From positions 1 through 63,851 of the IMG/VR virus record IMGVR_UViG_3300030419_006697: 63,851 nt of DNA. One strand, 5' to 3'. A program made the translations under genes and the position numbers. Of this stretch, positions 1,746 to 42,100 are shown piece after piece (within the stretch, counting starts at the first letter, position 1; each line of letters starts with the position of its first letter). Under the pieces are notes generated by a model. That model was not told where the DNA came from. It ran no database searches and saw only the letters and a list, made by a program, of their open reading frames with translations. This stretch comes from a virus.

Positions 1746-4700
1746 ATGGCTAAGGAATTATCAGTTGAAACTGCTGCCATTGGACGATGGTACGTTGGGA
1801 AAGAGTTCGAAAAACTAACCAATAAAAAAGCACTGGCTAGTCTAGGAACTTCAAAAGCAGACAAGGATCAGTATACAGTATTCAACACGTCACAAGACAC
1901 AAAAGCACCTTATTTGGCTTTACGAACCAAGCCAACGAGCGGAAAATCAGCCAAAACTATCGCACAAATGGCTGATGGAACTATAGTCCAAAAGCTTAAG
2001 GGAAAAAATACCAAAAAAGGCTCTTGGATAAAAGTAAAGATGCTGCTAGGAGTAGAAGTCGACGTCGAAGGTTGGTGTAATGCTTTTTGGCTTAAGCCTG
2101 GCGATGCAGATGGTTATTCGACCAAGCCAACTCATGAGGTATTTAACACGTCAAAAGACACAAAAGCACCTTATTTGGCTTTACGCACATTCCCAACTTC
2201 TGGCGCCGGCTCAAAAACTGCACCGGCCAAGACTATAGCCAAAATGCCTGATGGGACAAAAGTCTTCAGATTTGAAGGACCGGGCTCCAAAAAAGGAAAA
2301 TGGGTAAAAATACAAATATTATCATCTCCGGAGGTTGATCAAATTGGCCTGGCTGGATGGGCGCATAGTAAATGGTTAAAATCTATATCAGGCGACAAAG
2401 CTATAATTAGCGGAGATATATACAAAATAATAGTCCGAAATGTAGACAAAACAGATAAGAAAATCACCAAAGAATCTTTGAAAGCTTTAGAGTCTTCAAT
2501 AGAAGAAGAAGCTATACATATAATTTTATCAAATGTTAGCAAGTTAAATAAGAAAAAGATTGATGAAAATCCTCTAGGAATCAAAGAGGCGCTTAAGCCT
2601 AGCATTGATATAACTAGCGAATATGATATTTCAACTAGTAATCCAACGCAAATCAGTCATTTAGTGATATTTAAATACGGCGAAAAAGAAAAGAAGCTGA
2701 TTAAAGAAGCAGAGAACTTTGTACCACCAGAAAAGATAACACCAGTCACAAAAGAATACAGACTTTTTGAACACATCGATAATGTTAAAAAATTAGAAAC
2801 TATTGTCTCACAGGTTGTCGAAAAAATAAGAAATTCAGAGCGCGAGAAGGGTCCATATGCTTTTGATTTTAGAGCCATAGTGAGCAATGCTAAAGTTTAT
2901 TCACAATATATAGAGTCTTTAGAGGACCCTTTTCAAAATGCTGTAGATCAAGGCGTTAAAGAATTTGATTTAAGTAATCCAACGTTAAAAGGGTCTTATA
3001 AGAAATATGTTAGCGATTATGACGGCGGCGACATATCAGATGACTTTGAAATATATATTAAATATAGTTTTTCAGTTCCAGAGACTAGAAAACCAGAAAT
3101 TGAATTACTTGAAGTTCGCTATAATGAGCCTTCTGAAGAAAACAAAATTAAAACTTCAATAAAAGATGGCGCCACACATCAAGTGGCCAATACATCAAAA
3201 GATACAAAAGCACCTTATTTAGCTTTACGTACAAAACCATCTGGCGCGACCGGCGCCGCAGCAAAGAAGAAGAATGTCAAAACAGTTGCTAAAATGCCTG
3301 ATGGAACAAGAATAAAGCAATTAAAAAGCAAAAAAGGAAAGCCAATTAGCAAAGGAAACTGGATTAAGGCACAAATAGTGGACCTTAACAGCAACGACAA
3401 GGGCCTAGAAGGCTGGGCAAGCCAGGGTGGAAATTTTTTAACAAAAGTAGAATCTTCAGAAGTAGAATTGTGGAGACCTTGGAAAGATCCTTCACTGGTG
3501 GTATTGGGTTTGGATATCAAGAAACACCTTGATCCTTATTTTGTTAATTTAATTTTCAACATTCAGGATATTATGTCAATTGACCCTAATTCAATTACAG
3601 AAACGATAGCGGAAGAATTTGTAGAAAAGTATTTTATTAAGCCATCTCTAACAAGATTTGAAGCCCCTGAAGAAGCAAAGCGAGTTTACAATAGCGGTAA
3701 AATAAATTACAAAAACGAAACTGATCTAGAAAGAGAAACTTTAAGTGATGAGATAAAAAACAAGATACACAAAAGACTATTACTCAAGTATAACAATGTA
3801 GCTGATCAAGCCTTTTTATCTATGCTTAAGGATGTTGCATCAATTAAAACGCTGGAAGATATCTATGAAAAGGTTTTAAATGCCATTCCAACAACGGAAC
3901 TTATCAAGATGGTGGCAGAATGCTTGATGAAGGCTATTCCACTGCCTGATATTAAGCGTATGATATGTGATAGCGTATTTAGTGTTTTATCGCAAGATGA
4001 TTTAAACAAACTGCTGAGCTATTTAGGCACTTCTAATTCTGAAGTAGCACAGAAAATTAAAACAAAAATTGATCAATTGATAATAGAAAAGGGAGGTTTC
4101 AATGATCAAATTGGCTCTCTAATATCAGAGTCTATAACAAATCTTGAAGAAAAAGATGTTTTATGTGCAGCTGTATTAGCTGCGATTCCAGCAGCTATAG
4201 CTCTCTTGGCAACTATGACTGATCAAGATTTGGAAAAGCTTGGCAGAGACTTGTTGACTAATAAGATACTAAACCCTGCGCAGGACTTTTTAATTACATT
4301 ACAAAAAAGGATCGATCAATATTCAATAACTGGTATTACTGACGGCTGGAAGACTTTAATAGAACAGTTGATTGATAGCTTTATAGAAGAATTCATCGTT
4401 AAAACAACACAGCAAATATTGCAAGAATTGGCTTATTTATGTGAAGGTTCATCAAAATCAGATTTATCCGGAATGGGAAAAGCAAGTGATTTGCCACAAT
4501 CCATTAATGGTTTTCCACCGACTTTCCCATACCAGCCATTTGACTTAACGGAAGCTATTGATGCGACTGATAATGATGAAGCATATAATGACATAATCGA
4601 TGCATTATTGGATGAAGATATATCTCCCGAACTCATTAAAGAGTTTCTAGATGACTTAACATCACTGTTAACGGTGTCCGAGATATGTACCTTGTTGAAT

Positions 4701-7700
4701 GAAGATTCTAATAGTATCAACAGGGATTATATTCTTAATAAAGTTTGGTCATTTTTATCAAGTGAAGAAAAATATAAAGTTTTAGTTTCGAAACTTGGAA
4801 ATATCTCTCAATTGAGGCAGTTGTTTTATTTACTGTCTTTACGGCTTGATCTGGATTACTGCGTGCAGCAAACTAGAGCACTAGACGCAACAAAAAAAGT
4901 GTTAGCAGATATCTGTGGGCCTATTTCCAATGATGATTATATTGATCGTTTAAATGACAAGGCCGCTCAAGAAGTTATTGATGATTTGTTAAACAAAGAA
5001 GATGCCATAGCGTCAGGACTATTGGACAACTTGTTGAATTTTACAGATCCGTCTAGAATAACTGCTCAATTACCTCCTTTATTTTGTGGACCAGAAACGC
5101 AAGTTAATTCGAAGCCTCCTTTGTTCCTCTCACATCAACACGACAGTGAGAAATATTTAGCAGAAAAAATTATAAAACAAACTTTAAGCGGTATAGAAAA
5201 GCAATTTGAGCAAGATATATCATTTTTTAAAGGTATATTTCTTGCGCCTACAAATGAATTGACCAAAGTCATTGGAGATGCGAATAGTTTTAAAAATGCA
5301 ATGGCTTCGATTTATTCGTTAGCTGAATTAGTTAAAGGCATTAGTCCTCCAGAAAATCCTGAAGCATTTTACAACACACTCACTGAAAAGGGCACATTTA
5401 TTGCCCAATCAGTATATGACTTGCTTGTAAGTGCAGCAAATACAATAACAGTGTCTGGTCAAACAAATGAAGATTTTTTGAGAATTTTCGCGCAGCCTTC
5501 AATCACTGATGATACTCAATTATCGCTTAATTTTAATTACGGGGATGATGTACAGGTAACGTCTGGTCAAATAGAAGTAGAACCAAAGACGTCAAAGATG
5601 ATTGTCAACATTGTTGATGAAGAGCTTGATAGTGATTTGAGCGATGATCCATATAACAATTTTGCCAATAATGTTATTAATTCCTTTGGTTCCGGTGAAT
5701 ATGATCAAGAAATAAAAAGTACCGTAGTTGATGGTTTAGAATTTTATGGCTTTTTGTTGAAAACTATCATTATAGAGCACGCGGAATATATAACCCAGCA
5801 AGATTTATTTAAGCGAGCCAATTTTGACAAACTACAGCTGAATAAAGAAATTTGCACCAAATCCATATTATTTGGTGATGATATTTTAGAGAAAACACAA
5901 GAATACACTGATATGTTGGAATGTAAAAAAGACTTCACTAGTGTTCCTTTGGTCTTTGAGATAGTGCAAATTAATATGTATGTTCAAATTCTTATAAGGC
6001 TCGTTCTTATAGAAGAAATGCTAAAGAGTATATTTGTCTTCGCAACATTTAACATCGATTCTTTGCTCCCAGAAAATAATATTGAATCGTTCTATTATAG
6101 ATATTTATCTTCTCAAGTTGACAAGCGATTGTATGGCTTTTCTGAATTTGAGACAGTAAATTACAACATCAGCCAAGTAATAGCTAAATATTCTACACAG
6201 GTATATGCCGCCACGCAGAATTTAGACATTAAAGCAGATATTTCACAAGATGAAGAAATGTTTATGAAAACCAAAGAATGGCTTTTTGCCGAAGCCTTTT
6301 TAGCCGTTAGAAACGAATTTGCTGAAAAGCTAAAAGAATCAAATTTATTCACACCAGCCACATCCGATGCGGTTTTGGAAGAAGAATTTATTGCTGATGG
6401 GGATGCTCCATCATTTGAAGTGTTAACAAACATAATTTCTCCGAAGCGCTATAATCCTCCAACTATTAAAGACTTGGATTATAAAAATAAAAAGATAATT
6501 GTAGGAAAAGGTACTTATTCGTCAGATCAGAGATTGGTTAATGGTGGTTTTTTTGTTGAAACTGGTTATAAGATTGTGCCTAAATTATCATATGATGCAA
6601 GTCCGCTTGTTAATGAGGAATTCCCGGGATTATTGTTGACGATTGCGGACGTTGTAGCTTTAGCACCTGCAAAAAACCATCCTTATAGACAATTGTTTAA
6701 TATTTTTAATTTAAACGCATTAACCAAAGATGTTGAAAATTTGTATTTTAATGTAACAAAAAAATCAGTTAAAGAGAAACTGGTAGACACAGAAGATGTA
6801 CAATATTTTAATAATATCGGGAATATAAGCTCCGATTCGTATGGAATAGCTTTTCCAACTAGTCCTTTAAATGCGGATTATCTATTGGAACAGCACACAC
6901 AGCTGCAAAAACAAACAGCGCTGAACGTGGGCTTCCCGGAAGATCTTTTAGGTCAGTTAGAAGTGGCTTTGAGCGAAAACAAGGTTTTCAAACAATATAC
7001 CGATTATTATAGCCTAAATCTTCTTTTAAGAGTTGATGATCCTGCAGGCATAATGTTTGAAAAATATAACCAGCTGGTCAATAAAATTGTAGAATTGGAA
7101 CTTGGTGATTTACCGCTTCTTAATGAATTTGTGTCTTTTCACGATTCAATATTGGATAAAAAATATTTTATTCAAGAAGAAGATGGTCCACTGTATTTTA
7201 AATTGCCAATATTGGTTTATTATCCGTTTGAAGAAAATAATTCCGGTCTTTCTGATTTAGGCAAGATAAACGTCCTAGCATCTGAATTTTCAGATGCCGT
7301 GGATGATGAAGTTAGTCAAAGCTTAAAAGAAGACATTGCAACACAAGTATTGTTCAAAGATTTGATTAAGGTTATAAACTATAAAGATATTTTGTCTTAT
7401 CTGTCGATGATTATAACTGAAACTTTAGAACAGCAATACCCCAAATTAAGCACTGTTTTTGACAAGTCTTTTTTGACTACTTTAAGTGCATTAACTCCGC
7501 TTTTAGCGAATGCTGAAAGAGATATTAACCCAAATTATTATCAAGAAGATGCCACTTCTCAAATAGATGCTAGTGATCCAAGCGCAGATTGGCTGCCTTT
7601 AATAATGAAAGAGTTTTTAAAAACCATAGCCAATATGGTTGACCCCACTTGGAAAACGCCTTGGTTCGCACCAGGCCCATTTACACCTTTTGGCATAGCA

Positions 7701-11560: not shown

Positions 11561-14500
11561 ATGGCTTTAAAAGATTTATTTAAAGAGGCAAAGACACAAT
11601 ATCTAGCCGCTACGTCATTAGATCAATTAACAGGCAATCTTGAATCTGCAGATTATATAAAATTTTATTTAAGAAATAAAGATCGATTTGTCCCGCTTGT
11701 TGATTATTCAAAACCAGAAAATTTTGCTCGTTTTGGATCGGCAGAGAAATATTATTATGATAGCATTAACTGGATAGCGGATAATTATCCATATGATGGC
11801 TCTAAAAAAGAGCAAATATTATGGGAACTTTCCTCTTCTTACCTAGATCTTTACATTTTTGAAAATGACTATCCTAGAACTACTGGTTATGCCGTTTTTA
11901 CAACTGCTAGCTTAACTGCAACAGATGTATCTACTGGCAATTGGGGATCATATGGCGCAGCCGGAACAGCTTCATATGAATACGTTTTTGTAAATGGTGG
12001 CCCCAATGAAGGTATAGGAAATGCAATTTATCTAGATCCCGATTCAGGTGAGGCTAAATATCGTAAAAATGCAAATATATGGGATACTTCAAAAAATAGA
12101 GAATGTAATCTTAAGATAGGCGGAACAGATGGAAATACTGTTGAATTTTGGTTAAAAAAGGCCGCCTTCAATCCAGCAGCTACCAGAAAAGAAGTCATAT
12201 TTGATATTCACACTACATCTTCAATTTCTTCAAGTGCTGATTATGGTCGCCTCCGAATTGAGATGTCTGGTCACGGTGTGGCGACTAATACGCAGTCTCC
12301 ATTTTATATCACATATGTATCTGGAACATCTGGTGTAGCCAATTACAGCATAGGTAGCTCCATTACAACAGCATCTGTTGCTGATAACGAATGGCATCAC
12401 TATGCCTTTCGTATGAAAAATAGTGGCACTGATCTTATTGCTGATTTGTTTATTGATGGCGAACATAATCACCGCATCACTCGATCAGGAGCCGCAATTA
12501 ATTATGTTAGTGGCACTATAGTTGGCAATATTGCTGCATTAGCTACACATCCTTCAGGCACACACGCCGGCGCCCCAGCTGCCACAAAAGGATGGGGAAA
12601 ATTATCTGGCTCAATTGACGAATTTAGATACTGGAAGATTTGGAGAAATTCAGAGCAGATACAGACTAGATGGTTTGATCAATACGGCGGTGGTACGAAT
12701 ACCGATGACGCCAATACGGATTTAGGCGTGTATTACAAGTTTAATGAAGGTATCACTCTTACATCTTCTATTGATTCTAGAGTTTTAGACTTTTCTGGTC
12801 GAGTAAGTAATGGAACCTGGACTGGCTATAGTTCTGAATATTCACGAAATACTGGTTCTGCTATTAATAGCGCAAACATTACTTTAACTAACTTTACAGG
12901 TAGTGAATTTAGAGATCCCATTGTATATAAACAGCATCCAGCTTTTCGAAATCTAGTGAGTTCAAAGCGCCGTGTAGGAAAAGAATATGATTTCACAAAT
13001 TCATCCAATATATATTATAGCTTACCAGCTTGGATAATCGAAGACCACGATGCAAATAATCCTGATAATGATGGTATTATTGATAATTCACTGTGGAATT
13101 TAACGCAAATAATAAGTAGTTATTTTGATGTTGCCGCATCACAAATACAATCTCTGCCTTCATTAGCTCAACCTAATTATCCAAGTGCATCGATGAAACC
13201 AGTTCCGTTTATTGATAGAATATTAGAATCCAAGGGCTTTATAAGCCCGGAGATATTTTCAGCTATTGATGCTCTAGAGTCTTTTGAAAATAGAGACAAC
13301 AACTCTCTTTATAGTCAAAAGATATATGACATCAAGAACACTATTTATCGAAATATATATAACAACTTAACATACATCAACAAATCAAAGGGAACGGAAA
13401 AGTCTTTTAGAAACCTCGTTAGATGCTTTGGCATTGATGATGAGATTTATAAGTTTAATATGTATGGCAATAATGTTGAATACATATTGAGAGATAATTT
13501 TAGAACAATATCTGAAAGATATAGGCTCATTAATTTTAATGACACATTCAACAGCGATGCTGTTGTATATCAGTATTCTAGTAGTGCAAATCCCAATTCT
13601 ACAACTTTTATTTCCGCTAGTAATGTATACGACTCAACACAAGAAGGTGCAGGCTTGCCTTTCACTGTTGAAGCAAATATCATCTTTCCAAACAGAGTTG
13701 ATCAAGGGGATTATCATTCTTTAAGGAAAGACGACACAGCTGTTCGAAATCAATATCCACTGCTGCTGACTTCAAGCTTGTTTGGTATGCATACGGCTAT
13801 CGATACTGACCCAGCTGAAACCACTTGGAATCCTAATGATTACGCTAATTTTATAGTGAGAGCGGTAAAAACAGAAACGTTTACAAATAAGGCATATTTT
13901 GTACTTACAGGCTCTGCCGGCGGCTTTATGCCCGAACTATCCTCTTCTGTCTTTGACGAAGTTTATAGCGATAAAAATTGGCAATTTATGGTATCTTTAT
14001 ACCCATCTGCATATCCGAATGCGAATGAAGTTAGTGGTACAGCTGATAAAGACTATACAGTGCAGTTTTCCGGTATACATAGCATCACAGACACAACAAT
14101 AAATGAATTCACAGTTACTGGAACTATGACATCTACACAAGCAGCTCAATTTCTAGCTAGTCCGAAAAGATTATTTGTAGGCGCTCATCGCACCAACTTC
14201 ACTGGATCCTTAATAACCAGAAGCGATGTCAAGTTTAATACTTTACGTGTTTGGCAAAATAAATTAAGTATTGATGATCTTCGAATGCATTCTCGGAATC
14301 CAAAGAATTATGGATTCTCTGATCCTGAACAGAATGCATATTTGTTCAATACTTCTATAAACAAGGTTTATGTCCCAAATAAAGAGACTCTTCTACTTCA
14401 TTGGAATTTCGATAATGTAACTGGTTCCGATGCTAGCGGCGAATTTATAGTTGAAGATTTAACTTCTGGATCAGTTAGTCAAATTAATAGGTATGGATGG

Positions 14501-32661: not shown

Positions 32662-33578
32662 TAAAGAGGCAAAACATACTATACAGTATATTTGGAGACT
32701 TTTATAGAGCGAAAGATGAGCTTTTATTTTATTGCCCCTTTTGCAAACATCACAAAAAGAAACTTTCCATTAACTTGGATAAATCAGTATATCGATGTTG
32801 GGTATGTGATACAAAAGGTGGAGTTTCTTATCTTGTTAAACGATTTGGAACTGCTGAAGATAAACATAAATGGGAACTTCTTAATCAAGAGATTGATATG
32901 TCTTCGCTTGAGTCAATGTTTGAGATACAAAAAGAAGAAGAAAAACAAACAGTTAAACTTCCAAAAGAGTATTTTTGTTTAGCTCGCAAAGACTTGCCTT
33001 ATTCGGCTAAAGAGCCTCTTTCGTATCTTATGGCTCGTGGAATTTCTTCTGCTGATATTCTTTATTACAAAATTGGATATTGTGATAGAGGACAATATAG
33101 AAAGCGAATAATCATACCATCCTTTAATCAAGACGGAGATTGTAATTATTTTGTAGCTAGATCATATTGGAAGGATTGGTTAAAATATAAAAATCCACCA
33201 GTATCTAAAAATATCATCTTCAACGATCTTATGATTGACTGGAATAGTCCAATTACATTAGTTGAAGGCGTCTTTGACGCCATAAAAATAAATAACTCTA
33301 TTCCATTGTTGGGATCTACGTTACAAGAAAATACACAGCTCTTTAAAAAGCTAGCTGTAAAACAACCAAAAATATATATTGGCTTAGATAAAGATGCTTT
33401 GCTAAAATCGTTACAAATAATTAATTCTATGTTAGAATATGGCCTAGAAGTATATCGACTGGATACATCAAATATAGAAGATATTGGAGCCATATCTAGA
33501 TCAGAAGCAGAGCGGTTAAAAGAAGATTCATTAGCAATGAACACAGAGAATATATTTAATATTTATTGGAGAAATTAA
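32658..33578 (+). CDS. DNA primase (zinc ribbon plus TOPRIM)
   Basis: A 306-aa DnaG-type primase that would make RNA primers for lagging-strand synthesis. A zinc ribbon near the N-terminus has Cys26-x2-Cys29 and Cys47-x2-Cys50 (CPFC...CWVC). The TOPRIM domain shows the acidic motif VEGVFDAIK and a downstream IGLDKDAL, the Glu and Asp expected to bind metal. No fused helicase is seen, and the length resembles T4 gp61 (342 aa), so it presumably works with a separate helicase outside the window. It overlaps the YkuK-like gene by 4 bases and the nuclease gene by one (TAATG). Confidence 0.85.
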   Translation: MIKRQNILYSIFGDFYRAKDELLFYCPFCKHHKKKLSINLDKSVYRCWVCDTKGGVSYLVKRFGTAEDKHKWELLNQEIDMSSLESMFEIQKEEEKQTVKLPKEYFCLARKDLPYSAKEPLSYLMARGISSADILYYKIGYCDRGQYRKRIIIPSFNQDGDCNYFVARSYWKDWLKYKNPPVSKNIIFNDLMIDWNSPITLVEGVFDAIKINNSIPLLGSTLQENTQLFKKLAVKQPKIYIGLDKDALLKSLQIINSMLEYGLEVYRLDTSNIEDIGAISRSEAERLKEDSLAMNTENIFNIYWRN

Positions 33579-36500
33579 TGACCAGAATCGCACATATTAG
33601 TGACACACATATACGCAACTTACGATATCATAAAGAATATCGACAAGTATTTAAAACACTATTTGAACGACTGCGTGAAGAGAAAATTGACTATATTGTT
33701 CATTGTGGAGATATTGCACACTCAAAAACTCATATATCTCCAGAATTCGTAAAATTGTGTTCTGAATTTTTAATTGGGCTTTCTGCGGTTGCACCAACCT
33801 ATTTAATATTAGGAAACCACGATGGCAACCTTAAGAATAGCAGCCGGGAAGATGCTATATCACCCATTGTAAAAGCTTTAAATTTGCCTAACTTGTTTCT
33901 GCTCAAGAATTCTGGAATAGTGTCCATTGACAAAAAGATTGATCTTAATGTATTTAGCGTGTTTGATGATAGCAATTGGCATGTCCCTGCTAATAGTGAT
34001 TCTATCAATATCGCTTTATATCACGGGTCTATTTCAAACTGCAAGACAGATCTTGGCTGGGTTATGGAAAATGGCGATAACGATATCACTATCTTTGATG
34101 GCCACGATTTCGCGTTTTTGGGAGACATTCACAAAACCAACCAAGTGCTACAAGAGCAAGGCTGGGAAAACGGAATAAGAAAGCCAGTAGTAGTTTATCC
34201 AGGCAGCACTATTCAGCAAAACTTTGGAGAAACCGACGACAAGGGCTTTCTTGTATGGGATATCAAAAGCAAAGATGAATATTCAGTTAAGCATATTGCT
34301 ATACCCAACCCGAAACCATTTGTCACAATTCAACTAACAAAAACAGGACGGATTCCAAAAAACACAAAATGTCCAGAAGGTGCTAGAATTCGTTTAGTTT
34401 CAACAAATAACTTGCCGCTACACGTAATGAAGCGCGCTATTTCTATTGCTGAACATCGCTTCAAACCAGAACGAGTAACGTACCTTAACAGAGCAGCGGG
34501 AGAACGCGGTAATATTGAAGAGGGCACTAATAATCTTGCCATTGACAATCTGCGAGATTCATCAGTACAGAAAACACTTATTGAAGAATATCTGAAAGAC
34601 TACAATCCAACAGAAGAGCAGTTAAGTAAAGTGTTTAAACTAAACAAAAAATACAACACTGTTATTGAAGAAGCCGAAGAAGTTCAACGTAATGTAAATT
34701 GGCATTTGGGGAGCCTTTCGTGGGATAATCTTTTTAACTATGGAGAGGAAAACAGTATTGATTTTGATAAGTTAAACGGCATCGTTGGCATTTTTGGCAA
34801 GAACTATTCAGGCAAATCATCAGTAATAGACAGTTTGCTTTATATTTTATTCAATTCAACAAGTAAAAATGAAAGAAAAAATCTTAACATTATTAATCAA
34901 AATAAACAAGATGCGACCGGGCAAGCTGTTATTACGGTTGGCAATAAAGAGTATACAATTAAAAGAAAAAGTGAAAAGTACATTAAGAAACTTAAAGGTG
35001 AAGAAACATTAGAAGCCAAAACAACTGTTGATTTTTATGTAAAAGATTTAGTAACTGAAGATATCCAGATTTTAAACGGCACGACTCGCAATGAAACAGA
35101 TAAGATAATCCGTAAGCATTTCGGCACATTAGAGGATTTCTTGTTGACCTCTATGTCCTCGCAACTTGGTGCCCTTCAGTTTATCAGCGAAGGCTCAACA
35201 AAGAGAAAAGAGATTTTAGCAAAGTTCCTTGACTTGGAAATATTTGATAAGAAATATAAACTAGCAAAAGAAGACGCTACAGATTTGCGCGGAGCACTAC
35301 GAAGAACAGAAGATATCAATTACGATGATGAAATCTATGAAATAGAAAAACAGTTGATGTTTTCCGAGAACGAAATTAAAGAGCAGAACAATATCTGCGA
35401 ACAGATAAATAAAGATTTAATGAGTTTGCATACCGAGAAGAACGATCTTGAAATAAAGATTGATTCTATTCCAGCAGATATTATTGATATTGATAAAATT
35501 ATGAAAGAACGTTTGCTGGCAGAACGCAACGTTCAGACATATAATCTAAACGCCTCACAATGTCAGGCAATACTTGACAATAATAACCAACTTTTAGACA
35601 AAATAAGCAAGTTTGAGGAAACATTTGATGTAGGCGAGGTTCAAACTCAAAAAGATCAAATAGATCAAAAACTTCTTACAATAAACAAACTTTTAACAGA
35701 ATTGGAAAATGCAGAGAAGTTAAAGAAATTAAACGAAAAGAAAGTTAAACTTCTTGGAGAAGTTCCTTGTGGTGACCAGTTTAAGTCCTGTAAGTTCATC
35801 AAAGACGCTCACTCTTCTAAAGAAACTCTTGTTGACCTCGTTGGCCAAGTGAAAGCAATATCAGAGCAAAAGCAAAGAGAAGAAAGCCTTTTAAATCAAA
35901 CTGATAAAGAGAAGATTAATTCTCATCTTGACAAATATAAGAAGTTGATGGAAAAGAAATCTAACGCTGAAAAGGCAACAATGAAGGCTACTTTGGAAAA
36001 AGGCAAATGGGAGAACTCTATTCTTTTAGCCCAGAATGAAATAACCAGACTTTTGAGAATAGAAGAGGATTACAATAAAAACAAAGACCTTATCGAAAAT
36101 AAAGAATCGTTTACTTTGGAACTATCAAAAGTAACGAATGCTTTATTAAAGAAAGAACAAGAAAAGGCCGACTGCCAAAGAACACTATTAAAGTGCTATA
36201 AAGATAACGGTTCATTGGAACAAAAACTTAAGTCTTTAAAAGAACAAAAGCAAAACCTTATACTACTACAAGAGGAATTTTCAGCCTATGATCTTTTTAT
36301 GCGTTGTATGCATCCAAATGGAATTGCATATGATATCATTAAGAAACAATTACCCATCATCAATGAAGAGATTTCGAAAATTTTAGCTAATGTAGTCGAA
36401 TTTGAGGCTTTTTTCGAAACTGACGATAAGCATTTGAAAATCTTCATTAAGCACCCAAAACACGAACCTCGACCAGTTGAAATGGGTTCAGGGGCAGAAA

Positions 36501-36757
36501 AGACACTGGTAGCAATGGCTATTCGCTTGGCGTTGCTTTCTGTTTCATCTTTGCCGGTTGGTTCAGTCTTTATTTTGGATGAGCCGGGAACTGCTCTTGA
36601 TGCAGAGAATATGGACGGTTTTGTTGACATTTTACATATGATAAAAGAGCGGTTTAAAACAGTTTTGCTTATTTCTCATTTAGATTTTCTTAAAGACTGC
36701 GTAGATCAGGAAATTCCAATTGAAAAGGATAATGGGTTTGCAAAAATAAATATTTAA
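33578..36757 (+). CDS. Fused Mre11-Rad50 (SbcD-SbcC; gp47-gp46) recombination nuclease
   Basis: A 1059-aa single polypeptide joining two proteins that are separate in T4. Residues ~1-330 are the Mre11/SbcD phosphoesterase: ISDTHIR, CGDIAHS, ILGNHDG and a later ALYHGS, metal-binding motifs. From ~390 comes the Rad50/SbcC ATPase: Walker A GKNYSGKSS at ~406, long coiled coils, an apex motif CGDQFKSC near 726, return coil, signature MGSGAEKT near 969, Walker B FILDEPGTALD near 999 and an ISHLD H-loop. The complex resects DNA ends for recombination-dependent replication. ATG 33578 is chosen over TTG 33566 because of SD GGAGA at 33567-33571. The apex has CX6C instead of the usual CxxC zinc hook. 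Confidence 0.9.
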   Translation: MTRIAHISDTHIRNLRYHKEYRQVFKTLFERLREEKIDYIVHCGDIAHSKTHISPEFVKLCSEFLIGLSAVAPTYLILGNHDGNLKNSSREDAISPIVKALNLPNLFLLKNSGIVSIDKKIDLNVFSVFDDSNWHVPANSDSINIALYHGSISNCKTDLGWVMENGDNDITIFDGHDFAFLGDIHKTNQVLQEQGWENGIRKPVVVYPGSTIQQNFGETDDKGFLVWDIKSKDEYSVKHIAIPNPKPFVTIQLTKTGRIPKNTKCPEGARIRLVSTNNLPLHVMKRAISIAEHRFKPERVTYLNRAAGERGNIEEGTNNLAIDNLRDSSVQKTLIEEYLKDYNPTEEQLSKVFKLNKKYNTVIEEAEEVQRNVNWHLGSLSWDNLFNYGEENSIDFDKLNGIVGIFGKNYSGKSSVIDSLLYILFNSTSKNERKNLNIINQNKQDATGQAVITVGNKEYTIKRKSEKYIKKLKGEETLEAKTTVDFYVKDLVTEDIQILNGTTRNETDKIIRKHFGTLEDFLLTSMSSQLGALQFISEGSTKRKEILAKFLDLEIFDKKYKLAKEDATDLRGALRRTEDINYDDEIYEIEKQLMFSENEIKEQNNICEQINKDLMSLHTEKNDLEIKIDSIPADIIDIDKIMKERLLAERNVQTYNLNASQCQAILDNNNQLLDKISKFEETFDVGEVQTQKDQIDQKLLTINKLLTELENAEKLKKLNEKKVKLLGEVPCGDQFKSCKFIKDAHSSKETLVDLVGQVKAISEQKQREESLLNQTDKEKINSHLDKYKKLMEKKSNAEKATMKATLEKGKWENSILLAQNEITRLLRIEEDYNKNKDLIENKESFTLELSKVTNALLKKEQEKADCQRTLLKCYKDNGSLEQKLKSLKEQKQNLILLQEEFSAYDLFMRCMHPNGIAYDIIKKQLPIINEEISKILANVVEFEAFFETDDKHLKIFIKHPKHEPRPVEMGSGAEKTLVAMAIRLALLSVSSLPVGSVFILDEPGTALDAENMDGFVDILHMIKERFKTVLLISHLDFLKDCVDQEIPIEKDNGFAKINI

Positions 36758-36759
36758 AC

Positions 36760-36945
36760 TTTTTAGATGAGCCAGGAACTGCCCTTGACGCAGAGAATAT
36801 GGACGGTTTTATTTCTATTTTAGAACTAATTAAGACATACTTCAAAACGGTCATTTTGATTTCTCATCTTGACCATTTGAAGGATTGTGTCGATTTACAG
36901 GTCGTGATAGACAAAAAGGCTGGATATGCACATATGTGTATATGA
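36760..36945 (+). pseudogene. Relic of a second Rad50/gp46 C-terminus
   Basis: Immediately after the fused nuclease gene, in another frame, 61 codons encode the end of a Rad50-type ATPase again: LDEPGTALDAENMDGF (Walker B and D-loop, identical to the intact copy), then FKTV and LISHLDHLKDCVD (H-loop), ending AGYAHMCI and a TGA at 36943. It lacks Walker A, coiled coil, signature and any start with an SD. Third positions and the last ~20 residues differ from the intact gene, so it looks like the tail of a diverged homologue rather than a fresh tandem copy. Its stop region (TGAGGAG) provides the ribosome binding site for the next gene. Confidence 0.85.
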
Positions 36946-36954
36946 GGAGTGCAA

Positions 36955-37824
36955 GTGGGAATCTACAGAGAAACTGATGACAATTTAATGGTTAGATTTA
37001 AACTCAATGAGTCTTCTGGTACGAGCGCCGCCGATTCATCAGGCAATGGTCGAACTGGAACATTAGCTAATTTTACAAACACTACAACATGTTGGGTCGG
37101 AGGAAGACGAGGCGGGGGCCTGGACTTTGGACAAGGTTCTGACGACACTTGCACTTTTGCTTTTACAGATCCTGGCAATTTTACCACAATGATGGCTTTT
37201 GTTAGATGGGATAGTGATGCCGGTACATCACCGCGTATAATTCATTTAGGAAACAATATGCCTCCTTATCAGCTTATGTATTTTGATGCCACCAATAAGC
37301 AGTTGAGATTTGGTCTTACTTTTGCCGGCGGCGCGCAGTGGTTTAGAACCGCTAGCGATACTGTTGATACGGATAGCGTCTGGAGACATTTAGCGGTAAC
37401 CTATGATGCCTCTGATTACGAAAATAATCCTATTTTTTATATTAATGGAGAGGTTTCTGCAACCTCCCTAATCACAAGAACGAGCGGAGCTAGAACATCG
37501 CTAACAACTAATTTTGGTGCTTTGGGTCAAGTTTACAATGCAACTAATAGAGGATTAGATGGAGTGATATCAGATGCTAGAGTCTATAATCGGATATTGA
37601 CTCAACAAGAAATTTCTAGAGTTGCTAATTTCAGAGAGCCGGAAACATACACACAAAGCAATTTTAGTGATAATTTTGTGATAAATAAAAAGGATCAACT
37701 TTCTAGTCAACAATACACCAGAGATGATGGTACCATCACAGTAGATGAGGTCCCCTTTTCACTAGGAATAAAAGGGCCAATAAACTTAAGAGGTAGAAGA
37801 ACAGCCTATAAGGTAACTAAATAA
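36955..37824 (+). CDS. LamG/concanavalin-fold adhesin or tail fibre protein
   Basis: A 289-aa protein dominated by one LamG_3-like domain (residues ~5-215): MVRFKLNESSGTSAADSSGNG, GRRGGGLDFG, WRHLAVTYDAS, IFYINGEVSA and the closing DGVISDARVYNRILTQQEIS. The last ~65 residues are polar and basic. GTG 36955 is preferred to GTG 36949 because AGGAG (36945-36949) then has a normal 5-base spacer; the earlier GTG overlaps that SD. Such modules bind glycans or act as trimeric fibre caps. It opens the fibre/lysis block and probably belongs to a tail fibre or virion surface. Confidence 0.65.
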   Translation: MGIYRETDDNLMVRFKLNESSGTSAADSSGNGRTGTLANFTNTTTCWVGGRRGGGLDFGQGSDDTCTFAFTDPGNFTTMMAFVRWDSDAGTSPRIIHLGNNMPPYQLMYFDATNKQLRFGLTFAGGAQWFRTASDTVDTDSVWRHLAVTYDASDYENNPIFYINGEVSATSLITRTSGARTSLTTNFGALGQVYNATNRGLDGVISDARVYNRILTQQEISRVANFREPETYTQSNFSDNFVINKKDQLSSQQYTRDDGTITVDEVPFSLGIKGPINLRGRRTAYKVTK

Positions 37825-37835
37825 AGAGGTATAAA

Positions 37836-38027
37836 ATGATGAAACAAATTATAGACAAGGGCTTAAATAAGCTAGTATCTCGTAAGCTTATGGTTTGGGC
37901 AACCGCAACATATTTAATGTTATTCACATCTTCACTTGCAAGTGAAGATTGGGTTGCTGTGTCATTAGCTTATATTGGCATACAAGGCTTGGCCGATATT
38001 GCTTCTCAATGGAGACACGGCAAGTGA
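37836..38027 (+). CDS. Small membrane protein, holin candidate (63 aa)
   Basis: A 63-aa protein with two predicted membrane segments (about residues 18-35 and 38-55) separated by a short acidic turn (SED), a basic N-terminus and a basic C-terminus (QWRHGK). Size and topology fit a class II-type holin, which would permeabilise the inner membrane to trigger lysis. The two downstream genes, overlapping in order, encode membrane proteins with spanin-like layouts, which supports a lysis cassette. SD AAGAGG lies at 37824-37829. There is no sequence motif that proves holin function. Confidence 0.45.
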   Translation: MMKQIIDKGLNKLVSRKLMVWATATYLMLFTSSLASEDWVAVSLAYIGIQGLADIASQWRHGK

Positions 38028-39901: not shown

Positions 39902-42100
39902 ATGGCTAAAATACAATATTCACGTTATGAGAAGGGTATTGATCTTCAGGATCACTCCAGTTCTTACTCTAGTAATGCTGGTGCAATCTACCTTTCTGGT
40001 ACGTACATGAACTTTCGAACTGATTTAAGTTTGAACTCATCAGGTATCAGCAATATGTCTGATCCCGAGAGCGCGCAGGATGCCGCAACAAAGGCGTATG
40101 TTGATGCGCAAATCACCGCTCAAGACTTGGATTTCCAAGGCGACACCGGTGGTGCCCTTAGTATCGATCTAGACAGTGAGACACTCACTATCGCTGGTAC
40201 TGCAAACGAAATTGAGACTGCCGGTTCTGGCAACACTCTCACAATCGGTCTTCCCGATAGCGTTACTATTGGAGATGCTCTAACAGTAACCGGACTGCTC
40301 ACCGCCAATGGCAGTGTTGATCTTGGTAATGCTACTAGCGACACCATCACAGCTACTGGTCGTTTTGATTCCGATCTTGTTCCTTCAACTGACAGCGCCC
40401 GCAAGCTCGGTTCTTCGGCACTTCAGTGGTCCGAACTTCACGTTGATGTTGGTTACATTGATCGTCTTGCTGCAGCAATGGACTGCGACAGTCAAGCAAT
40501 GACTAACGTTAACGTTGACTCTGGTAACATCGATGGTACTATCATTGGTGCTGCTTCTCGTGCAGCTGCTAGTGTTACAACTCTAGACGCTAACTCAACC
40601 CTCAACGCTGATGGCGCTGCCACATTTGGTAGTACTGTTAGTGGTTCCGGTGCTGCTCAATTCGCTTCACTTCACTGTGACAGTGTAAATCTCGATGGCG
40701 GTAACATGGACGGTGTCGCTATCGGTGCTGCAGCCCGCTCAACAGCACAATTCACCACAGTTGATGCTAACTCAACTCTTAACGCTTCTGGCGCTGCCAC
40801 TTTCGGTAGCACAGTTAGTGGTTCTGGCGCAGCCCAGTTCGCTTCACTTCACTGTGATAGCGTAAACCTTGACGGTGGTAACATTGATGGTATGACCATC
40901 GCAACTTCCGATGTAACTGTTGGTGCCGGTAAAACACTCGACGTTTCTGCTGGTACTCTAACCACTTCAGCCGCACAGAAACTTGCTATCATGCAGGGTG
41001 CCGCTTCTAACGTTGATATCGGTTCCTATGACCTCCGCGCTGCAACTCTTACTGCCGATGGTCTAACTTCCGGTCGCGTAGTCTTCGCTGGTGCTAACGG
41101 TGTCCTTTCTGATGATTCCGATATGTCTTTCAGCGGTGACACACTTACAGTCACCAAGCTCGGCGCTTTCCAAGCTGCTGGTGCAATTGACTTTGATGAC
41201 CAAAACATGACCAACGTCGACATCGACAGTGGTGCTATGGATGGTGTTGTTATTGGTGCTGCCAGCGCTGCTGCCGCTTCATTCACTACAGTCAATGCTT
41301 CCGGTCAGGTTTCCGGTTCTGCAGCTGGTAAGTTCTTGAGTCTAGCTCTCAACACCGATTCTTTCGAGGTTGATTCATCAGGTAACCTTGATTCCAGCGG
41401 TTATGTCATTGTTGACGGTCGTGGTATGTTTGGTGGTCGTTTGGATGTTACTGGTGCTTTCGTTGCCAAAGGCAACGTTGAACTCGGTGACGCCACAAGC
41501 GACACTATTACAGCAACTGGTCGTTTCGCTTCAGATCTAGTTCCATCAACTGATGGTGCTCGTGACCTAGGTTCTTCCGCTCTAGAGTGGAAAGACCTTT
41601 ACCTAGATGGTGTTGCCTATATGGATGCTGTAGAGGCTGACACACTAAAGGTTGCTGATCTAACTGATAACCGCCTCGTCATCGCTGGTGCAAGTGGTGA
41701 GTTAGAGGATAGTGCCAACCTTACTTACGATGGTACAACTTTCGATATTGCTGCCGCAGTATCGGTTGATGGTAACATCACTCTGGATAACGATCACGAT
41801 GTAAAGGCACGCGCCTTCATCACTTATTCAGACGTCGCCCTTAAAGAGAACGTTGAGACTGTCACAAATGCAATGGAGATGATCCAAGGTCTACGTGGCG
41901 TTTCATACGATCTCAAAAGTGGTGGCAAGCGAGAGTTTGGTTTCATCGCTCAAGAGGTCAACAATGTTGTCCCAGAAGTGGTTCACACCAATGACGGAAT
42001 GATGGGTATCGATTATACTCGTATCACTTCGCTTCTCGTTGAAGCAGTAAAAAGCCAACAAATTGAAATTGCTGCTTTAAAAGCCAAACTAGACAAGTAA
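39902..42100 (+). CDS. Long tail fibre with internal repeats and Peptidase_S74 domain
   Basis: A 732-aa, Ala/Ser/Thr/Asp-rich trimeric-fibre-like protein. The N-terminus (KIQYSRYEKGIDLQDHSSS, DPESAQDAATKAYVDAQI) fits phage fibre attachment regions. Two distant copies of GD/NATSDTITATGRF, SDLVPSTD and LGSSALxW occur at ~145-180 and ~530-565, and a 59-residue tandem repeat lies at ~229-345. The C-terminus is an S74 chaperone: ITYSDVALKENVETV (Ser/Lys dyad), REFGFIAQEVNNVVPEVV, then SLLVEAVKSQQIEI. Strong SD AAAGGAG. Codon choice is unusually rich in C-ending codons (AAC, ATC, CTC), like the capsid gene and unlike most neighbours, suggesting high expression. A strong terminator follows. Confidence 0.85.
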   Translation: MAKIQYSRYEKGIDLQDHSSSYSSNAGAIYLSGTYMNFRTDLSLNSSGISNMSDPESAQDAATKAYVDAQITAQDLDFQGDTGGALSIDLDSETLTIAGTANEIETAGSGNTLTIGLPDSVTIGDALTVTGLLTANGSVDLGNATSDTITATGRFDSDLVPSTDSARKLGSSALQWSELHVDVGYIDRLAAAMDCDSQAMTNVNVDSGNIDGTIIGAASRAAASVTTLDANSTLNADGAATFGSTVSGSGAAQFASLHCDSVNLDGGNMDGVAIGAAARSTAQFTTVDANSTLNASGAATFGSTVSGSGAAQFASLHCDSVNLDGGNIDGMTIATSDVTVGAGKTLDVSAGTLTTSAAQKLAIMQGAASNVDIGSYDLRAATLTADGLTSGRVVFAGANGVLSDDSDMSFSGDTLTVTKLGAFQAAGAIDFDDQNMTNVDIDSGAMDGVVIGAASAAAASFTTVNASGQVSGSAAGKFLSLALNTDSFEVDSSGNLDSSGYVIVDGRGMFGGRLDVTGAFVAKGNVELGDATSDTITATGRFASDLVPSTDGARDLGSSALEWKDLYLDGVAYMDAVEADTLKVADLTDNRLVIAGASGELEDSANLTYDGTTFDIAAAVSVDGNITLDNDHDVKARAFITYSDVALKENVETVTNAMEMIQGLRGVSYDLKSGGKREFGFIAQEVNNVVPEVVHTNDGMMGIDYTRITSLLVEAVKSQQIEIAALKAKLDK
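40586..40939 (+). repeat. Tandem 177-bp coding repeat in the long fibre gene
   Basis: Two adjacent units start at 40586 and 40763 (period 177 bases, 59 codons), each encoding DANSTLNAxGAATFGSTVSG then GAAQFASLHCDSVNLDGGN. Many differences are synonymous; the second unit diverges after about 130 bases. More degenerate copies of the GAxDG(V/T)xIGAA part lie on both sides. Confidence 0.85.

What the first reader, a model, noticed from the sequence alone, without database searches (positions are those of the whole stretch)
36758..36945. Out-of-frame relic of a second Rad50/gp46 C-terminus that carries the next gene's ribosome binding site
Right after the intact gene the DNA again encodes the Walker B, D-loop and H-loop end of a Rad50 ATPase (16 identical residues from LDEP to DGF) in another frame, with many synonymous changes. 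It looks like the stump left when an incoming homologous gene replaced the resident one by recombination near its 3' end. The relic's stop TGAGGAG forms the SD for GTG 36955, which would explain why it was kept.
Basis: partly seen in the sequence, partly recalled or inferred. Interest (0 to 1): 0.75.

Follow-up and report, generated by a model that had tools for sequence, protein, structure and literature searches.

The report
Phage gene's original tail, displaced downstream
A marine phage DNA-repair gene received a foreign tail end while its own old tail end was left just behind it, apparently because the next gene starts from it; relatives show the same thing repeatedly, three times with a DNA-cutting selfish gene sitting between the two tails.

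Summary
The relic is real. Directly after a 1063-codon Mre11-Rad50 (gp47/gp46-like) fusion gene (33566-36757), 36763-36945 encodes a second Rad50 C-terminus in another frame. Comparison with 250 other IMG/VR junctions of this gene shows that the relic is the resident 3' end in its native place: it fits the lineage of the gene body and leads into the same following gene as in relatives. What is foreign is the last ~44 codons of the intact gene (36623-36757): only the tail was swapped, not the gene. The event recurs: 13 of 249 junctions carry a displaced copy of this gene's end, against 6 of 1890 other gene ends. In three relatives an endonuclease gene (intact GIY-YIG, a GIY-YIG remnant, an HNH-like gene) lies between new and old ends; other loci have ordinary cargo there. 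The displaced ends reach, and often hold, the ribosome-binding site or start codon of the next gene. Fungal mitochondrial mobile ORFs make the same architecture; I found no phage description in the library searched. That an endonuclease drove the window's own event is inferred: none remains there. New variant of a known kind.

The parts
33566..36757 (+). Mre11-Rad50 (SbcD-SbcC, gp47-gp46-like) fusion gene, 1063 codons from TTG 33566 (an in-frame ATG follows four codons later)
   Evidence: Pfam Metallophos at residues 7-157 and AAA_23 at 384-622; PHROG 77 SbcC-like and 100 SbcD-like
36575..36622 (+). Segment A in the gene: Walker B/D-loop codons LDEPGTALDAENMDGF; near-identical DNA recurs in the relic
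   Evidence: 89.6% DNA identity with relic A against 56.6% for the segment after it; only 0.03% of locus pairs with that low a tail identity have A that similar
36623..36757 (+). Foreign tail: last ~44 codons and stop of the intact gene
   Evidence: Identity to the nearest relatives is at or below the range expected from the gene body (0 of 78 locus pairs as low, against L168 and L116)
36758..36762 (+). Junction/linker (ACTTT) between foreign tail and displaced native end
   Evidence: Sequence; not found in other IMG/VR contigs
36763..36945 (+). Displaced native 3' end of the gene (relic), open in its own frame to TGA 36943-36945
   Evidence: First 44 residues after LDEP... identical to L004; lineage and synteny tests
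36944..36949 (+). Shine-Dalgarno-like GAGGAG overlapping the relic's stop codon
   Evidence: Sequence; the relatives L116 and L161 have TGAGG(GG) in the same place
36955..37824 (+). Next gene: Laminin_G_3 protein with the C-terminal ~50 aa shared by the genes that follow this gene in relatives
   Evidence: Pfam PF13385 E 5e-18; C-term 48-50% identical to L116 and L164 next genes
37836..38027 (+). 63-aa ORF found after the variable gene in relatives (anchor for synteny)
   Evidence: tblastn 90% identity in L116, matches in most loci

Best explanation
The relic is the resident 3' end of the Mre11-Rad50 fusion gene, displaced by an end-swap recombination. A DNA fragment from another phage of the same group, carrying a foreign 3' end of this gene, recombined into the resident gene within the codons for Walker B/D-loop. 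The left side joined by homology (segment A), so the gene got a new in-frame tail and stop. The right side joined without homology just 5' of the resident Walker B codons, so the resident 3' end was left behind, out of frame. It is kept because its stop codon is part of the ribosome-binding site of the next gene. In relatives the same event brought in a gene between new and old ends: a GIY-YIG endonuclease (L063), its remnant (L034), an HNH-like endonuclease (L021) or ordinary cargo. The likely history of the window is therefore insertion of [foreign tail + endonuclease or cargo gene], followed by loss of that gene. SHOWN: foreign tail, native relic, synteny, recurrence, association with endonucleases. 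INFERRED: that endonuclease cutting started the event, that an inserted gene was lost here, and that the SD is why the relic remains.
For: (1) Lineage: for the nearest relatives L168 and L116 the gene tail is 62-63% identical where pairs with equal body identity give 73.6 +/- 6.0 (0 of 78 as low); the relic tail is 77.5-86% (80th-95th percentile). (2) Synteny: relatives have [gene end]-TGAGG-[variable gene with shared C-terminus]-[63-aa ORF]; in the window that order starts from the relic. Genes on both sides, the gene body and the relic point to the same group L168/L164/L116/L161. (3) Recurrence: 13 of 249 gene ends against 6 of 1890 other gene ends have a downstream copy, Fisher p = 8e-9. 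(4) Endonucleases: among 207 junctions the 3 with an endonuclease ORF of these families after the gene all have a stump, against 4 of 204 without, p = 2.4e-5. (5) Same right junction: stumps of W, L063 and L034 all start at GATG(A)GCC of Walker B. (6) Filled/empty pair: L034's stump and following gene match L210's intact gene end nearly base for base. (7) Retention: in the L021 clade the start codon ATGCTTATG of different cargo genes lies out of frame inside the stub.
Against: No endonuclease or remnant of these families is left in the window (phmmer over all its ORFs). Four of the seven non-L021-clade cases, and most stubs of the L021 clade, have no recognised endonuclease. The donor of the foreign tail was not found (best 73% DNA). 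For L063 the native/foreign call is not decisive (80.0 vs 77.8%). The 13 cases are not 13 independent events: seven are one clade and L063/L034 may share an event. The tail is only ~130 nt, so lineage signals are short.
Confidence: 0.72

Rival explanations
1. Plain illegitimate recombination between two co-infecting related phages: the gene end of one was joined to the Walker B region of the other, with no mobile element or cargo gene ever involved.
For: Nothing lies between the two ends in the window except ACTTT. Cases L020, L070 and L112 have no recognised endonuclease.
Against: The right junction coincides within a few bases with that of the GIY-YIG insertion in L063 and its decayed form in L034; displaced ends are strongly concentrated at this gene and go with endonucleases.
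Confidence: 0.3
2. Cassette model: the 3' end of this gene is a portable translation-initiation region. Cargo genes travel as [gene-end stub + cargo] and are exchanged by homologous recombination through the stubs; the window is a stage from which the cargo was lost.
For: In the L021 clade 34-54 nt stubs recur up to two times downstream, each with a different cargo gene starting inside it. SD or start of the next gene lies in the gene's 3' end in 92 of 160 loci where one was found.
Against: The window's relic is about 180 nt and starts at Walker B, far longer than a start region needs. Clear stub arrays were seen in one clade only.
Confidence: 0.35
3. Local tandem duplication of the gene's own 3' end, followed by divergence.
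For: Segment A is 89.6% identical between copies.
Against: The following segment is only 56.6% identical, and the functional copy, not the free one, is the one that departs from the lineage.
Confidence: 0.04
4. Assembly chimera of two strains at 36757/36763.
For: Single contig, reads not available; exact junction absent from other contigs.
Against: No shared k-mer at the junction to cause a false join, although a 21-nt identical stretch exists elsewhere in the two copies; both flanks belong to the same group of relatives; the same architecture exists in independent contigs from other samples.
Confidence: 0.05
5. The relic is expressed as a second C-terminus through a -1 frameshift at the end of the gene.
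For: The relic is in the -1 frame and that frame is open from 36733.
Against: The TTTAAAC heptamer at the stop is in the wrong phase for -1 slippage; no relative has such an arrangement; elsewhere stumps are broken in the gene's own frame while the next gene's start stays.
Confidence: 0.02

Closest known systems
Mobile endonuclease ORFs of fungal mitochondria that carry a foreign C-terminus (Allomyces atp6; Glomus atp6, atp9, cox2, nad3; PMC3630166)
   Same: Foreign in-frame 3' end on the resident gene; resident 3' end displaced downstream and closer to relatives than the new one; endonuclease ORF between them (relatives L063, L034, L021).
   Different: Phage, not organelle; gene is Mre11-Rad50; no endonuclease left in the window; displaced end serves the next gene's translation start; non-endonuclease cargo also found.
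Free-standing homing endonucleases of T4-like phages (seg, mob; PMC2988022)
   Same: GIY-YIG and HNH genes placed next to conserved DNA-metabolism genes; promoterless insertions into polycistronic units.
   Different: The passages of that review that I searched mention no duplicated gene ends (no occurrence of 'duplicat'); insertions there lie between genes or split a gene (mobE in nrdA, mobA in gene 60).
Nuclease genes at boundaries of genetic exchange in phages (PMC10448857)
   Same: Endonuclease genes mark junctions of exchange and move cargo.
   Different: That paper concerns whole-gene modules; in the passages I searched the duplication described is within the endonuclease genes.
Mre11/Rad50 fusion proteins (PMC3175470)
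   Same: Single polypeptide with Mre11-like and Rad50-like parts, reported with sporadic distribution in viruses, bacteria and plasmids.
   Different: That report does not concern displaced gene ends (title and abstract read only).

Membership tests
Mobile-ORF gene hybrids (fungal mitochondrial type) | Resident gene ends in a foreign, in-frame C-terminus | tested here: met
   Tail identity below expectation for the lineage
Mobile-ORF gene hybrids (fungal mitochondrial type) | Native C-terminus displaced downstream and more similar to relatives | tested here: met
Mobile-ORF gene hybrids (fungal mitochondrial type) | Endonuclease ORF between new and native ends | tested here: not met
   Absent in the window; present in L063, L021 and as a remnant in L034
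Mobile-ORF gene hybrids (fungal mitochondrial type) | Endonuclease cuts the uninvaded allele and the element moves | not testable with these tools
   Needs biochemistry
Phage free-standing homing endonuclease insertion | Endonuclease gene at the site | tested here: not met
   None in the window; 3 of 207 relatives' junctions
Phage free-standing homing endonuclease insertion | Uninvaded allele known at the same site | tested here: met
   For L034: L210; for the window only ~70-73% DNA relatives such as L116
Mre11-Rad50 fusion | Mre11-type phosphoesterase and Rad50-type ATPase in one ORF | tested here: met
Pseudogene from whole-gene replacement | Body of the intact gene foreign to the flanking genome | tested here: not met
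   Body and flanking genes share nearest relatives

The most novel reading that the evidence does not exclude
In these phages selfish endonucleases and cargo genes invade essential genes at conserved catalytic codons and bring a replacement gene end with them, so the host gene is never broken; the displaced native end stays as the start region of the next gene and becomes a reusable landing site. The primase gene of L038, with a displaced 5' end ahead of a GIY-YIG gene, would be the mirror form.
Probability: 0.45. Interest if true: 0.75.

Novelty: new variant of a known kind. Interest (0 to 1): 0.58.

Why it matters
It would show a way by which mobile genes can enter essential phage genes without an intron or intein, known so far (to my knowledge and in the library searched) from fungal mitochondria, and it would explain short out-of-frame copies of gene ends between phage genes. 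It also makes a testable link between endonuclease homing and the build-up of variable gene islands next to conserved genes. The invaded gene is itself of the nuclease family that processes DNA ends in recombination.

Tried and rejected
Exact-junction search in IMG/VR: no match. DNA search of annotated phage records with the two ends: no match; the gene itself has only distant relatives there (best 32%). Apparent second copies in L033, L035, L229, L150, L153 and L281 were chance or unrelated-gene matches and were left out. L077's apparent copy is a gene end overlapping the shared N-terminal motif. Most N-terminal repeats of the generic scan are the shared MKITK... motif, not displaced ends. 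Lineage test for L063: inconclusive. Literature search for phage cases of duplicated gene ends with endonucleases: none found in the open library; subscription papers are not covered. Frameshift expression of the relic: rejected on phase. No structure prediction was run; the conserved Walker B, D-loop and H-loop residues are present in the gene's foreign tail by sequence.

Full report
OBSERVATION. The window is a 63,851-base virus record. ORF 33566-36757 encodes 1063 residues with an Mre11-type phosphoesterase and a Rad50-type ATPase. Immediately after its stop, the -1 frame encodes FLDEPGTALDAENMDGF...AHMCI*, a second Rad50 C-terminus of 61 residues. The first 45-50 nt of the repeat are 92-93% identical between copies, the rest 57%. 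The match is far beyond chance.

RELATIVES. Scans of IMG/VR gave 328 loci with the 3' end of this gene, 251 of them distinct, 249 with at least 500 nt downstream. Annotated phage records hold only distant relatives.

WHICH END IS NATIVE. The gene body of the window is nearest to L168, L116, L164 and the L161 group. For pairs of relatives with the same body identity as window-L168 or window-L116 (about 73.5%), the last 43 codons are 73.6 +/- 6.0% identical. The window gene's tail is 62-63% (none of 78 pairs as low); the relic's tail is 77.5% and 86%. Against L164 the tail is at the 4th percentile, and against the L161 group at the 3rd to 19th, so the signal is strongest for the closest relatives. 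The relic is identical to L004 from LDEP to CVD. In L116, L161 and others the gene end runs TGAGG into a variable gene with a shared C-terminus and then a 63-aa ORF; in the window that order begins at the relic. Primase and other upstream genes, the gene body and the downstream genes all have their best matches in the same group of loci. Thus the relic is native and in place, and the foreign part is the gene's last ~44 codons. Segment A (LDEPGTALDAENMDGF) is alike in both copies beyond expectation (0.03% of comparable pairs), so the homologous crossover probably lies at its 3' edge, with resident A on both sides.

RECURRENCE. A displaced 3' end of this gene lies downstream of the intact gene in 13 of 249 loci; for other genes in the same loci the count is 6 of 1890 (p = 8e-9). 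Cases fall into at least four groups: the window; L063 with L034; L020, L070 and L112; and the L021 clade (L021, L305, L309, L317, L323, L341, L356). They are not independent events one by one.

ENDONUCLEASES. L063 has an intact GIY-YIG/NUMOD3 gene (5048-5641) between gene and stump; L034 has only its C-terminal part (13212-13469) and a stump with an internal deletion; L021 has an HNH-like endonuclease (3268-4205; PHROG hits to endonuclease VII and HNH families, no Pfam hit) and a 45-49-nt stump. Of 207 junctions the three with such a gene all have stumps (p = 2.4e-5). L034's stump and next gene match the end of the intact gene and next gene of L210 almost base for base, so L210 is its empty-site form and the stump is native. 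Stumps of the window, L063 and L034 begin at the same Walker B codons. L038 has a mirror case: a displaced 5' end of the primase gene, a small ORF and a GIY-YIG gene, then an intact primase.

WHY IT STAYS. The relic's TGA overlaps GAGGAG, five bases before GTG 36955; relatives have TGAGG in the same place. In 92 of 160 loci where a start with SD was found near the gene end, the SD or the start lies in the gene's 3' end. In the L021 clade, stubs of 34-54 nt recur between cargo genes, and each cargo gene starts out of frame inside a stub (ATGCTTATG), even where the stub's own reading frame is broken. Other stumps are eroded at their 5' side or internally but keep the end next to the following gene.

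MECHANISM. Best supported is an end-swap: homologous entry within the Walker B/D-loop codons, non-homologous exit just before the resident Walker B codons, new tail on the gene, old tail left as the next gene's start region. The involvement of an endonuclease or cargo gene in the window itself is inferred from relatives; neither is present now.

KNOWN OR NEW. The architecture equals the fungal mitochondrial gene hybrids with mobile endonuclease ORFs, where the native C-terminus is likewise closer to relatives than the inserted one (PMC3630166). In the phage papers I could search I found no such case, but most subscription papers are not held. I therefore rate it a new variant of a known kind.

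LIMITS. One contig, no reads, no close relatives of the window (about 70-74% DNA in the body), short tails, unknown donor, endonuclease activity untested.

Noticed in passing
L038 7371-8644: Displaced 5' end of the primase gene (MEEKRKMLTDILGSYYQ...), then a small ORF and a GIY-YIG endonuclease gene, then an intact primase gene: mirror image of the finding.
   Followed up: partly
L018 16129-16158, L112 8388-8417, L138 8919-8944: 26-30 nt copies of another gene's 3' end downstream of that gene; in L112 the gene is tubulin/FtsZ-like (PF00091). Possibly a second hot spot.
   Followed up: partly
L021 clade: L305, L309, L317, L323, L341, L356, L360, L361, L363: The last 35-54 nt of the gene recur as stubs between variable cargo genes (one with a DNA methylase domain, L309), which start out of frame inside the stub.
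   Followed up: partly
many loci downstream of the gene, e.g. L020 3083, L070 533 and 1018, L077 2288 and 2995, L038 7543: Unrelated small genes share the N-terminal motif MKITKxQLKxIIKEEL (others MKLLMENWRKFVNEE), reminiscent (from memory) of capsid-targeting sequences of T4 internal proteins.
   Followed up: no
window 36955-37824; L116, L161, L157, L102, L098: The genes between this gene and the 63-aa ORF have different main parts but a related ~50-aa C-terminus (..QAPFSLGxxGPxxLRGRxxAYK).
   Followed up: partly
L063 1309-1854, L282 550-1107, L069 2181-2864: GIY-YIG-related ORFs directly upstream of the start of the Mre11-Rad50 gene.
   Followed up: partly
L063 4989-5047: Before the GIY-YIG gene lie a short FFLDEPP-like remnant of the Walker B site and a perfect 12-bp inverted repeat followed by T (terminator-like).
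   Followed up: no
window 39902-42100: Tail-fibre-like protein with a Peptidase_S74 chaperone domain.
   Followed up: no
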